A stretch of 64,000 nt of DNA from Burkholderia sp. BCC0506 (lineage in GTDB: Bacteria > Pseudomonadota > Gammaproteobacteria > Burkholderiales > Burkholderiaceae): the NCBI RefSeq assembly GCF_902833145.1, contig NZ_CADFEN010000006.1, forward strand, positions 124,001 through 188,000. Reading direction: 5' to 3'. How positions within the stretch are numbered: the first letter of the stretch is position 1; each line of letters begins with the position of its first letter. A program made the position numbers and the translations under genes. Below, piece after piece: positions 16,284-19,172 of this stretch. Below the pieces are notes generated by a model that worked only from the letters and a program-made list of their open reading frames with translations, was not told where the DNA came from and made no database searches.

Positions 16284-16918
16284 GCGGCTCTCCTTCGGAA
16301 TGCGGGCATTGCTGCGGGAGAGCCGACTTTACGAGCTTTGCGCGCGGCGGGAGCGAACTTATCCTGCGAAGCTATCGATGCCGTTTCAGCTTTGCTTTCC
16401 ATGCTTTATTGAATGCGATGGTCGATTGAGCGTCGATTAATATGTGGAGATATGGACTGCAAGCTCTCCTCCGAATCGACGATAGAAACAATCGCCGGAG
16501 CCTCAGCGGTGCTGTTGGACACGTGTGGATACCGAGGCCGTGCATCTTCATCTATCACGTCAACTAACCGCGGTTGACGCCCCCTCTCATACGAGGGCAA
16601 CGAGGAAGAACGCGATGACTCGCGAGACAGGCCAGACCAGAACGTAAATTCTGGGACCTTTAACATAAAACTCGAGCTCGATTTAAGATTTTCTGGAAAA
16701 TTCCTAGCTTCCAGATCGAATGTCTCGATTAGATCGCCAATCCAGTTCAAATATCACCTGACGCGTACCGCCATCTTGCCAGGTAATATTTCGTACAAAT
16801 CCCATATCAATTCAACGAAGTAAACGTTAGTTTTCCATATCAAACGAATAATCGTTTGACACTCGATCCGACAAAAATCACACACAAAGTTGCGCACAGC
16901 GCAACATTGCGAGGAATC
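16284..16918. other. Low-G+C region without a supported gene (left part of an acquired islet)
   Basis: Base composition drops sharply after about 16,400; a hand count of the line at 16,681 gives about 37% G+C, against about 67% in a typical core line. The first 100 bases hold the tauA promoter and leader. On the minus strand two short open frames (16942-16754 and 16750-16406) are in the same phase and separated by one TGA, which could be the remains of a gene. Neither has a ribosome site or a family I recognise. The rest appears non-coding. Confidence 0.45.
16841..16858. promoter_or_regulatory. Palindromic operator CAAACGA-N4-TCGTTTG
   Basis: The site CAAACGAATAATCGTTTG is a perfect 7-4-7 inverted repeat, 61 bases before the first small ORF of the islet. 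An 18-base dyad at this distance is typical of a TetR- or MarR-type operator. No regulator gene is present in the islet, so the binding protein would be encoded elsewhere. Confidence 0.45.
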
Positions 16919-17068
16919 ATGGAAAACGCAATTCCGATGCACTCACCCAGCCCATCTTCCAATACAGATGACCTACCTTTTCGCTTCCCAACGGAACTCG
17001 CCAAATACCGAAACGATAGCATCACGTTCAATCTCCCGAATTATCAAATAAGCACCAAAGATCAATAA
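16919..17068 (+). CDS. Small hypothetical protein (49 residues) at the head of the monooxygenase islet
   Basis: The ATG at 16919 follows GAGGA and opens a 49-codon frame rich in Ser, Pro and Asn (it starts MENAIPMHSPSPSSN and ends NYQISTKDQ). There is no signal peptide or membrane segment. It lies 37 bases before the NTF2-like gene on the same strand and could be a small precursor or accessory peptide, or non-coding. The low G+C content makes chance ORFs of this size fairly likely, so the call is tentative. Confidence 0.35.
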   Translation: MENAIPMHSPSPSSNTDDLPFRFPTELAKYRNDSITFNLPNYQISTKDQ

Positions 17069-17105
17069 CTCCGCCAAACGAGACCTTCAGCCCAAAAAAA
17101 ATTTC

Positions 17106-17519
17106 ATGAAACTCAAATACAGTTTATCGCAAATGAGGGACGTTTGGATCGACGCCTACATGAACGGCGACATCGACCAGCTTAATTTTGTGGAAAGCAG
17201 TCATTTCTTCATAAAACGAGGAAATAGGATACTGACGAAATCCCAGCAAATATCCTATATACAACGACATCTTTCCGAGAAAACTTGGCGAAATTTCGGC
17301 CTGCGTGTTCACGACGAAATTACAGAAATCACGCAAAAACAACAATGGGCGTCGTTTTCCGGCACGGGCTCGATGCGACGTGACGGAAGAATACTTACTG
17401 CGTTTGATTTTCTGGAGCTATGGTTAATCTTCGACGATCGGTGGCAAATAGCAGCGCTTTGCTATGACGAAAAGGATCGAGAAGGCCGAACAACAACAGA
17501 TCAACCGAATCGCGCATAG
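17106..17519 (+). CDS. NTF2-like / SnoaL-like small protein
   Basis: This 137-residue protein has the general pattern of the NTF2-like (DUF4440/SnoaL) cone fold: an N-terminal helix with WIDAYMNGDIDQL, a middle segment ending in ASFSGTGSM, and a final strand LELWLIFDDRWQIAALCYDE. Such proteins serve as small-molecule binding pockets, isomerases, cyclases or dimerisation modules. It uses codons rare in the neighbouring genes (AGG, ATA, TTA, AAA), consistent with recent transfer. No good Shine-Dalgarno precedes the ATG at 17106; the leader is A-rich. It lies 33 bases before the flavin monooxygenase gene and may act on the same pathway. The precise role is unknown. Confidence 0.65.
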   Translation: MKLKYSLSQMRDVWIDAYMNGDIDQLNFVESSHFFIKRGNRILTKSQQISYIQRHLSEKTWRNFGLRVHDEITEITQKQQWASFSGTGSMRRDGRILTAFDFLELWLIFDDRWQIAALCYDEKDREGRTTTDQPNRA

Positions 17520-17552
17520 CAATGCGTCGACGCTTCCTGCAATCGTCTACCT

Positions 17553-19037
17553 ATGCCCCTGATAAACATGAATGATTCATTGATGAGCTCGCCCCAATTT
17601 TCTGGTGCTCGACGCAGCGCCGATGTTATTCAGCGCTTGCGCAAACATCCTGCCGAAATCTGGCATCGCGGTGTGCGGGTCACCGACGTTATCATCGATC
17701 CGGCATTCAAAAACGGGGTGGCAACCTTGGCCGGGCTCTACGATTACCAATGGGACGCTGAGGAAATCCTGCTTGAGACGGGCCCCAGAGGTACGACGGT
17801 CAATCGCTCGTTCGGCATTCCCCGCGCCGCGTCAGACCTTGTTTCGCTCGGCAACGCTCTTCAGCATAGCGCCCAATACAGCATGGGGATGCTCGGGCGC
17901 GAACCCGCGTATCTGAATCGCGCGATATCCTCTTTCTCAGGAAGCGCGGCATTGTTCGGTGCCTCCGATCGAGCATATGGCGTAAATGCGATCCGGTACC
18001 ATGATTTCATTCGCGAAAACGACCTGTCGCTGACCCACACGGTGCTCAATCCACGCCCGGACCGCCTGGTCGGTCCAGCATTCCAGGTTGATGCGGCGGT
18101 TGCCACTCACGTGTGCGAGGAACGAGATGACGGCATCGTGATACGCGGCGCACGTCTGCTGGCGACTCTGCCATTCGCCGACGAGATCGCGCTCTTTCCC
18201 GCGCGCTTGATGGATCATTCTGACCAGTCAAAGTCATATGCATTTGGCTGCGCACTCCCGACTGCGACGCCCGGCCTGCGCTTCGTCTGCCGCGACTCGG
18301 TCGATTACGGATTCGGCGCTGCGGATCACCCGCTTAGCGCCCGATTCGAGGAAATGGACGCGGTCGCGATCTTCGACAATGTGTTTGTTCCGTGGGAACG
18401 CGTCTTTTGCTATCGAGATATCGACATTTGCAATATGGCCTACATGGCCACCGGTGCGACCGCGCACATGGCTTATCAAGTAGTTTGCAAGAATATCGTC
18501 AAGACCGAGTTTCTCCTCGGTCTTGTCTCCCTGATGATCGAAGGATCGGGATTTGAAAGATTTCAGCACGTTCATGAAAAAATGGCCGAAGTCTGGGTCA
18601 ACCTTGAAACTTTGAAGGCCTTCAGGTATGCGGCCGAAGCCGGTGCCCATAATAACGCTTTCGGGATGCTCGTTCCGGCTTGGGATCCGCTTGACGCTGC
18701 TAGAAATCTGTATCCTCGCCTCTATCCCAGAATGGTCGAGATCATTCAGCAACTGGGAGCCAGCGGTCTCGTGTCGATGCCGTCCACGATATCTCTCAAT
18801 GGACCGCTTGCCGCGGACATCAGACGCTATTACGAGGCAGCCCGCATGGATGCCTACGATCGGATCGCACTATACCGGTTAGCGTGGGACACAGCGATCT
18901 CGGCATTTGGCGGGCGCCAAATCCTATATGAGCGCTTCTTCTTCGGTGACCCTGCCCAGATGGCGTCGCGCCTGTTTAGAGAAAAGGACTGCTCCGAGGC
19001 AATGAACCGGGTCAAAGCATTTCTGGCGCGTTCGTGA
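17553..19037 (+). CDS. HpaB-family FADH2-dependent aromatic monooxygenase
   Basis: This 494-residue protein matches the oxygenase component of 4-hydroxyphenylacetate 3-hydroxylase in length and motifs: RENDLSLTHTVLNPRPDR (residues 154-171, substrate/flavin region), DNVFVPWERVF (275-285), and FGGRQILYERFFFGDP near the C-terminus (452-467). Members include HpaB, PvcC and chlorophenol monooxygenases, all needing FADH2 from a separate reductase. No HpaC-type reductase lies in the window. Composition is intermediate (about 57% G+C in one counted line), unlike the flanks. The start is uncertain; 17553, 17568 and 17583 are all possible and none has a clear ribosome site. The substrate is unknown; absence of catabolic neighbours suggests a biosynthetic role (PvcC-like), by inference. 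Confidence 0.88.
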   Translation: MPLINMNDSLMSSPQFSGARRSADVIQRLRKHPAEIWHRGVRVTDVIIDPAFKNGVATLAGLYDYQWDAEEILLETGPRGTTVNRSFGIPRAASDLVSLGNALQHSAQYSMGMLGREPAYLNRAISSFSGSAALFGASDRAYGVNAIRYHDFIRENDLSLTHTVLNPRPDRLVGPAFQVDAAVATHVCEERDDGIVIRGARLLATLPFADEIALFPARLMDHSDQSKSYAFGCALPTATPGLRFVCRDSVDYGFGAADHPLSARFEEMDAVAIFDNVFVPWERVFCYRDIDICNMAYMATGATAHMAYQVVCKNIVKTEFLLGLVSLMIEGSGFERFQHVHEKMAEVWVNLETLKAFRYAAEAGAHNNAFGMLVPAWDPLDAARNLYPRLYPRMVEIIQQLGASGLVSMPSTISLNGPLAADIRRYYEAARMDAYDRIALYRLAWDTAISAFGGRQILYERFFFGDPAQMASRLFREKDCSEAMNRVKAFLARS

Positions 19038-19120
19038 AAAGCATCCCAATTTCTCGCACCTGATTATTTAATGCCTGGACCGCCAGAAATAGCTGTTCTC
19101 GGGACATTGAAACAAAAACC

Positions 19121-19153
19121 GAATAAAAAACCCGCGTCGCGGGTTTTTTATTC
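19121..19153. terminator. Bidirectional rho-independent terminator (perfect 16-base arms)
   Basis: GAATAAAAAACCCGCG, a single T, then its exact complement form a 33-base perfect palindrome. The GC-rich core is flanked by an A-run on one side and a T-run on the other, so it terminates in both directions: the HpaB-like gene from the left and lipA from the right. It also marks the right boundary of the low-G+C islet. Confidence 0.9.
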
Positions 19154-19172
19154 ATTGAGCGTCAGCGAGCGC

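What the first reader, a model, noticed from the sequence alone, without database searches (positions are those of the whole stretch)
16400..19120. Low-G+C islet with an HpaB-type flavin monooxygenase, NTF2-like protein and small ORF
Directly seen: G+C falls to about 37-48% in counted lines at 16.6-17.1 kb and about 57% in the monooxygenase, against about 67% in core genes; codons rare in neighbours are common; a palindromic operator precedes it and a long bidirectional terminator closes it. Known: HpaB-type enzymes need a separate FADH2 reductase, and NTF2-like folds are common in natural-product pathways. Inference: an acquired mini-pathway that hydroxylates an aromatic or tyrosine-derived compound, possibly one made by another locus or carried on the small peptide encoded first. 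No reductase or transporter is nearby, so it must borrow host partners. I do not know of a described three-gene unit like this.
Basis: partly seen in the sequence, partly recalled or inferred. Interest (0 to 1): 0.72.

Follow-up and report, generated by a model that had tools for sequence, protein, structure and literature searches.

The report
Leftover microcin operon with immunity gene
This low-G+C patch looks like the worn-down remains of an operon for an antibacterial peptide (a microcin); the parts that survive are a probable immunity protein and an enzyme that may once have added hydroxyl groups to tyrosines of the peptide.

Summary
The islet is real: G+C 52% in a window of 68%, starting at about 16406. 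It is not a three-gene mini-pathway. Related cassettes occur in Pseudomonas flavescens, Paraburkholderia lacunae and three unnamed Burkholderiaceae: GRDP-like precursor (MctA) - ABC exporter (MctB) - JmjC/cupin protein (MctC) - DUF2164 protein (MctE, absent in two) - NTF2-like protein (MctD) - HpaB. The first five are the genes of E. coli plasmid microcin Mcc1229, where mctA, mctB and mctC are needed for activity and mctD plus mctE give immunity. The window keeps mctD and hpaB. Its small ORF is best read as a deletion scar joining the start of mctA to the end of mctC, not as a peptide gene. Five relatives at the same lipA site keep only an upstream block plus mctD, which shows purifying selection in the four without a stop: an orphan immunity gene is its likeliest present role, though E. 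coli mctD alone did not protect. HpaB is not in the E. coli operon; in all five cassettes that carry it, the Cys-rich MctA tail holds two or three tyrosines, where E. coli has none. I infer that HpaB makes DOPA (catechol) on the microcin.

The parts
16406..19119 (.). low-G+C islet inserted between a tauA-like gene and lipA; left edge within about 10 bp, right edge approximate
   Evidence: 23 of 30 relative loci examined have an empty 245-286 bp intergenic region
16785..16846 (+). block upstream of the first ORF conserved in relatives with the same islet (81-85% identity over 56-62 bp in four of five, weaker in the fifth), with a CCATATCAA direct repeat (16802, 16835); perhaps the promoter region
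16919..17068 (+). 49-aa ORF: probable deletion scar, start of mctA (FRFPTELAKYRNDSI) joined in frame to the end of mctC (FNLPNY)
   Evidence: mctA N-terminal profile 0 of 3000 shuffles, mctC C-terminal profile 4 of 3000, in cassette order; no credible homologue; against:
17106..17519 (+). mctD homologue, NTF2-like protein, probable immunity component
17553..19037 (+). HpaB-type two-component flavin monooxygenase of the microcin-linked clade (about 60% identical to the five cassette HpaBs)
19120..19154 (.). bidirectional terminator-like hairpin, probably the resident lipA terminator

Best explanation
The islet is the decayed remnant of a horizontally acquired Mcc1229-like microcin cassette, mctA-mctB-mctC-(mctE)-mctD-hpaB, inserted between a tauA-like gene and lipA. 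In intact relatives MctA would be the precursor (a conserved GRDP-like body with a Cys-rich C-terminal tail), MctC (JmjC/cupin) and HpaB would modify it, MctB would export it, and MctE+MctD would protect the producer. In this genome deletion removed most of mctA, all of mctB, most of mctC and all of mctE, leaving a 49-aa scar ORF. mctD (NTF2-like) and hpaB remain. mctD is probably kept as an orphan immunity gene against microcins of neighbours; hpaB is probably a relict with no substrate left here. In intact cassettes HpaB most likely ortho-hydroxylates tyrosines of the MctA tail to DOPA, with reduced flavin from a host reductase. Shown: homology, gene order, empty sites, purifying selection on mctD. 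Inferred: the immunity role here, the substrate of HpaB, the course of the deletions.
For: Cassettes with the same order in L051, L056, L085, L091, L181. E. coli plasmid homologues: tblastn against all plasmids MctA 3e-34, MctC 2e-49, MctD of L091 3e-6 to 5e-7; BLASTP against the five E. coli proteins alone MctA 4e-44, MctB 4e-28, MctC 2e-61, MctD 2e-13, window MctD 3e-8; NTF2 profile against E. coli MctD P=7e-12 over 114 columns; DUF2164 for mctE (cassette copies 20.8-26.5 bits, just under the cut-off of 27). Published function (PMC8853679). Scar tests. Same insertion site in the window and five relatives. dN/dS of mctD 0.09-0.34 among five of the six lipA-site genes. Traces or copies of other cassette genes beside the NTF2-like gene in 8 of 21 loci outside the five cassettes, window included; far control one general ABC transporter. 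No MctA match in the window genome at E 0.001, no MctC match at 1e-20 or 1e-30. HpaB triad kept, carboxylate-binding Ser/Thr replaced by Ala/Arg in 6 of 6. Tyrosines in the last 24 residues of MctA in 5 of 5 HpaB cassettes (2-3 each), 0 in E. coli.
Against: In E. coli neither mctD nor mctE alone protected, and mctE is missing here; a chromosomal DUF2164 gene exists, but it is only marginally similar to cassette MctE and its partnership is speculation. Window NTF2 is 22% identical to E. coli MctD. The small ORF did not reach E 0.5 with the whole mctA profile in the scan of all loci; the significant tests used sub-profiles chosen after I saw the likeness. Window HpaB has an open frame and its triad, unexpected for a useless relict, yet departs from 65 of 300 residues invariant in the other five, more than any other member. 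The HpaB-tyrosine link rests on five related cassettes, one with a broken mctA, and one operon without HpaB.
Confidence: 0.74

Rival explanations
1. Pure decay: mctD and hpaB are both useless leftovers that have not yet been lost.
For: Three of the 19 genus genomes with an NTF2-like match have a stop codon inside it (G007, G020, G027), and in G010 a second copy is split in two by another cluster. mctE is missing beside mctD here.
Against: dN/dS 0.09-0.34 for mctD at the lipA site and 0.14-0.33 in five loci at, or sharing a flank with, a second site; the block before the islet genes is conserved and stands next to mctD in relatives; open 494-aa HpaB frame with the catalytic triad.
Confidence: 0.25
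2. Functional two-gene unit for a small aromatic compound: HpaB hydroxylates a free phenol and the NTF2-like protein assists as a cyclase or dehydratase.
For: HpaB scores above the TIGR02309 cut-off; similar NTF2 folds occur in polyketide pathways (SgcJ, ActVI-ORFA, Aln2).
Against: The residues that hold the carboxylate of 4-hydroxyphenylacetate are changed in all six clade members; the islet holds no other degradation or biosynthesis gene; the six clade members seen stand with microcin genes or their probable traces; the characterised relative of the NTF2-like gene with the same neighbours is part of an immunity pair.
Confidence: 0.12
3. The 49-aa ORF is a new ribosomal peptide gene modified by HpaB, unrelated to mctA.
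For: It has an ATG start, stands just before mctD and has two tyrosines.
Against: No credible homologue in 65 genus genomes; its two halves match mctA start and mctC end in cassette order; no exporter in the islet.
Confidence: 0.06

Closest known systems
Microcin Mcc1229 operon mctABC with mctDE (E. coli plasmids p0.1229_3, pHUSEC41-3; PMC8853679: abstract, passages, sections 7 and 11 read)
   Same: The cassettes related to this islet have homologues of mctA, mctB, mctC, mctD and mctE, with a Cys-rich precursor tail; the end of mctE overlaps the start of mctD.
   Different: The Burkholderiaceae and Pseudomonas cassettes put all genes on one strand and add an HpaB hydroxylase, with tyrosines in the MctA tail; three of the five lie on contigs of 3 Mb or more (L051, L056, L181), the other two on draft contigs. 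The window keeps only mctD and hpaB.
4-hydroxyphenylacetate 3-hydroxylase, oxygenase component HpaB (Thermus thermophilus 2YYG; review PMC10537072, passages read)
   Same: Same family over the full length; catalytic Arg100-Tyr104-His142 equivalents kept (R116, Y120, H162).
   Different: Ser197-Thr198, which bind the carboxylate of 4-HPA, are Ala217-Arg218; no flavin reductase gene in the islet.
Mcc17978 locus of Acinetobacter baumannii (PMC10333792, passages read)
   Same: A microcin locus that also has a cupin-like protein, iron control and a catecholate receptor in the target.
   Different: There the cupin-like protein gave immunity; the exporter is of HlyD/SunT type; no NTF2-like, DUF2164 or HpaB gene is mentioned in the passages read.

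Membership tests
Mcc1229-type microcin operon | mctA precursor with Cys-rich C-terminus | tested here: not met
   Window holds only a probable N-terminal scar; no MctA match in the genome. Met in the five related cassettes (one with an in-frame stop).
Mcc1229-type microcin operon | mctB ABC exporter and mctC cupin protein | tested here: not met
   Absent from the window islet; no close MctC in the genome. Present in L051, L056, L085, L091, L181.
Mcc1229-type microcin operon | mctD (NTF2-like) gene | tested here: met
   Profile comparison P=7e-12 over 114 columns with E. coli MctD; same place in the cassette.
Mcc1229-type microcin operon | mctE (DUF2164) gene next to mctD | tested here: not met
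   No trace in the window nor before mctD in L051 and L056; present in L077/L092, L085, L087, L091, L095, L181, broken in L088, trace in L082.
Mcc1229-type microcin operon | immunity conferred by mctD/mctE; killing by the product | not testable with these tools
   Known for E. coli (PMC8853679).
HpaB (TIGR02309) | score above the curated cut-off; catalytic Arg-Tyr-His | tested here: met
   546 bits, cut-off 480; R116, Y120, H162.
HpaB acting on 4-hydroxyphenylacetate | Ser197-Thr198 carboxylate site | tested here: not met
   Ala-Arg in 6 of 6 clade members.
NTF2-like superfamily | alpha+beta NTF2 fold | tested here: met

The most novel reading that the evidence does not exclude
There is an HpaB-bearing branch of Mcc1229-like microcins in Burkholderiaceae and Pseudomonas in which a two-component flavin monooxygenase turns tyrosines of the Cys-rich C-terminal tail into DOPA, so that the ribosomal peptide itself carries catechols and can imitate a catecholate siderophore at TonB-dependent receptors (Mcc1229 enters through CirA). 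Its immunity gene mctD outlives the cassette and persists as an orphan in Burkholderia; the mctE-mctD pair without mctABC seen on an E. coli IncF plasmid would be the same phenomenon.
Probability: 0.33. Interest if true: 0.8.

Novelty: new variant of a known kind. Interest (0 to 1): 0.6.

Why it matters
A 2022 review (start of abstract seen in the listing) counts only 15 microcins, all from Enterobacteriaceae; one from Acinetobacter followed in 2023; and the chemical identity of Mcc1229 is not known. The relatives found here show its gene set in Burkholderiaceae and Pseudomonas, give conserved residues for the precursor tail, and suggest a concrete, testable modification (tyrosine to DOPA). 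The window shows how such a cassette decays and which gene survives.

Tried and rejected
Peptide-substrate reading of the small ORF: dropped. Palindrome as operator: dropped. Fur box: no match with 6 or fewer mismatches to the recalled consensus before the window ORFs; one 6-mismatch match each before E. coli mctA and in L046. Phage or viral carriage: no NTF2 match in phages, no relative in viral contigs for NTF2 or MctC, a weak partial MctC match on one Agrobacterium phage (two records). Plasmid carriage of the HpaB form: 17 plasmid records at E 1e-80, none from Escherichia; the 10 listed are 43-46% identical, all Deinococcus. DUF2164 query L085 on plasmids: no match, although E. coli mctE is annotated there, so that query was too distant. 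Aureibacter plasmid MctA-like hit: neighbours are heme/TonB-type genes, no mctB/mctC. PADLOC: nothing for six proteins. NCBIfam: nothing for four cassette proteins and E. coli MctC, one hit far below cut-off for E. coli MctA. MctC in 369 class genomes: 3 hits at 25-30% identity, not followed. PDB sequence search with the NTF2 profile: best E 0.1. Motif before orphan mctD genes: most carriers share a site or flank, so not independent; left as a note. HpaB dN/dS for the window could not be computed (dS saturated). L075 (stop inside) was left out of the dN/dS set. Of 59 genomes with the tauA-like gene, 30 loci were examined: 23 empty, 2 with the islet, 5 (one the window itself) without lipA in reach; of the 23, six were aligned. 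HpaB loci were sought by HpaB itself only in the genus and on plasmids, so HpaBs of this clade without NTF2 elsewhere could have been missed.

Not in print, as far as searched: (open-access PMC library only) found no paper linking HpaB to a microcin; one search lists five papers with the string Mcc1229, of which only PMC8853679 was opened.
Full report

THE SITE. Of 30 relative loci with the tauA-like gene that I examined, 23 have an empty 245-286 bp intergenic region of G+C 59-65%, 2 carry a short islet, and 5 (one the window) do not reach lipA. Six of the 23 were aligned: the match ends at 16405 in three, 16401 in one and about 16414 in two. Five relatives (G008, G010, G027, G046, G047; loci L074, L043, L075, L076, L042) have an islet at the same place that makes the intergenic region only 815-986 bp long (2892 in the window): the same left part, a conserved 56-62 bp block (in four by BLASTN, weaker in L043) and the NTF2-like gene, but no small ORF and no HpaB. 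One of the five (G027) has a stop in the NTF2-like gene.

HOW THE GENES TRAVEL. HpaB of this clade is rare: of 65 genus genomes 29 have any HpaB-type match, but besides the window only G009 and G035 have a full-length 61% relative; G062 has a C-terminal remnant. In all of these the NTF2-like gene is immediately upstream. The NTF2-like gene is commoner: 19 of 65 genus genomes, at several sites. A flank comparison of 27 loci gives a group of six at lipA, a group of seven at a second site with two more sharing one flank, a pair (L051, L056) with L050 sharing one flank, and singletons. The named search (18 loci) added Paraburkholderia lacunae, two Cupriavidus, Trinickia, Pseudomonas flavescens and an unclassified Burkholderiaceae.

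THE CASSETTE. L091 (Pseudomonas flavescens), L085 (Paraburkholderia lacunae) and L181 (unnamed G1088, same family) carry six genes in order: a GRDP-like protein of about 230 aa with a Cys-rich C-terminus (the label GRDP-like is recalled; Pfam gave no hit), an ABC transporter of about 553 aa, a 290-aa JmjC_2 protein, a 77-78-aa DUF2164-like protein whose end overlaps the next gene, the NTF2-like protein, and HpaB. L051 (G009) and L056 (G035) have the same without the DUF2164 gene, of which a profile finds no trace there. In L085 the first gene has an in-frame stop. G+C is 38-44% over most of the L091 cassette, 46-51% in L051, 41-50% in L181 and 47-58% in L085.

WHAT THE CASSETTE IS. A protein search of plasmids found the JmjC protein at 33% identity on 25 E. 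coli records, 23 of them 7.9-kb plasmids. One carries, in order, a hypothetical protein, an ABC transporter and a cupin protein, and on the other strand a DUF2164-DUF4440 pair. BLASTP of the L091 proteins against these five alone: MctA 4e-44, MctB 4e-28, MctC 2e-61, MctD 2e-13; window MctD 3e-8. Against all plasmids MctA reaches 3e-34, MctC of L085 2e-49 and MctD 3e-6 to 5e-7. The NTF2 profile of 15 relatives matches E. coli MctD over 114 columns, P=7e-12. This is the operon of microcin Mcc1229: its plasmid, 12.9 kb, is among the hits. PMC8853679 (abstract, passages, sections 7 and 11 read) reports that mctA, mctB and mctC are each needed for activity, that mctD and mctE together but neither alone give immunity, that CirA and TonB are needed for entry, that production rises when iron is short, and that the chemical identity is unknown. 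Its authors had noted that MctD belongs to the NTF2 clan.

THE SMALL ORF. It has no credible homologue in 65 genus genomes: five others match at E 0.37-0.96 only. Residues FRFPTELAKYRNDSI resemble the start of MctA (FTYPTELEKYEHSGV in L091) and FNLPNY resembles the end of MctC (FNLPKF in L181). A profile of the MctA N-terminus scores the ORF above all 3000 shuffles; a profile of the MctC C-terminus is equalled or beaten by 4 of 3000. The order is that expected of one deletion removing the rest of mctA, mctB and most of mctC. Caveats: the sub-profiles were chosen after I saw the likeness; with whole-length profiles the ORF gives 6 of 3000 for mctA and 982 of 3000 for mctC, and the scan of all loci did not report it at E 0.5.

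DECAY AND RETENTION. In 21 loci with the NTF2-like gene (the five cassettes and the split copy in L055 left out), profiles found traces or copies of other cassette genes beside it in 8: window hpaB; L044 mctC; L050 hpaB; L077 mctC and mctE; L082 mctE; L087 mctE; L088 mctC and mctE; L095 mctE. The far controls gave one general ABC transporter. In 13 of 21 nothing else was found. Among five lipA-site NTF2 genes dN/dS is 0.09-0.34, among five of the second group 0.14-0.33 (some dS values are saturated). So the gene is kept while the rest is lost, as an immunity gene without its microcin would be. E. coli gives a parallel: 76 plasmid records (70 Escherichia) match the NTF2-like protein of L091, against 25 E. 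coli records with mctC (the sets were not compared record by record), and the one I opened has DUF2164-NTF2 on an IncF plasmid with no mctABC annotated in the 12 kb shown. Against: mctD alone was not protective in E. coli. The window genome has a DUF2164 gene elsewhere; 63 of 65 genus genomes have a match, which in one (G041) is the cassette mctE itself. Its likeness to cassette MctE is marginal (E 0.01-0.4), to E. coli MctE better (3e-6).

HPAB. The catalytic Arg-Tyr-His of Thermus HpaB is kept (R116, Y120, H162), whereas the two residues reported to bind the carboxylate of 4-HPA are Ala-Arg in all six members of the clade (PMC10537072 passages). No Escherichia plasmid record matches HpaB at E 1e-80, and none is annotated on the two plasmids opened. 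The MctA tails of the five HpaB cassettes follow CGxxxCGxYCxCNS..LY(A/S/T), with tyrosine at two invariant places and a third in two tails; the E. coli tail reads CGCSGKGCGAGCSCNSR. The simple inference is that HpaB hydroxylates these tyrosines. A catechol-bearing tail would suit entry by a catecholate receptor; Mcc1229 uses CirA and Mcc17978 uses Fiu/PiuA. This is inference from six sequences, five of them related.

WINDOW HPAB TODAY. It is open and keeps the triad, but departs from 65 of 300 residues invariant in the other five, where the next most divergent (L091) departs from 26 of 261. That fits either an older branch or relaxed selection; with no MctA in the genome I favour a relict. Four flavin-reductase matches exist elsewhere in the genome, so a reductase need not be lacking.

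VERDICT. Origin as a decayed Mcc1229-like cassette: about 0.85. Orphan immunity as present role of the NTF2-like gene: about 0.5. DOPA-forming HpaB in the intact cassettes: about 0.33. The kind (microcin operon) is known; the HpaB-bearing branch outside enterics appears to be a new variant.

Noticed in passing
L055 4001-11199 (G010:C3): An NTF2-like/mctD gene is split by a 7-kb low-G+C cluster with YcaO, TfuA, ThiF-rhodanese, ThiS-like, methyltransferase and transporter-like genes (thioamide-RiPP-like); residues 1-37 lie left and 85-124 right of it.
   Followed up: partly
L045, L046, L047, L048, L049, L050, L052, L053 before the NTF2-like gene; L051 and L056 before mctA: A motif like RACTTGTCCWATTG stands 104-115 bases before the start codon (L046: 155); 10 of 27 loci, background 0.011 per 300 bp for the loose form. 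Most carriers share a site or flank, so they are not independent.
   Followed up: partly
L182 5810-6360 (E. coli plasmid NZ_CP068849): DUF2164 and NTF2-like genes side by side on an IncF plasmid without mctABC annotated nearby: a possible orphan immunity pair.
   Followed up: partly
G000:C13:22512-22727 (L208): DUF2164 gene outside any cassette in the window genome, with matches in nearly all genus genomes; apparently a resident gene of unknown role.
   Followed up: partly
L154, L156, L157, L158: Four tauA-like loci in which lipA is not within the stretch fetched; they may hold other inserts at this site.
   Followed up: no
L180 7965-8468 (Aureibacter tunicatorum plasmid): An MctA-like protein beside TonB-dependent receptor, CobN and ExbB-type genes, without mctB or mctC.
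   Followed up: no
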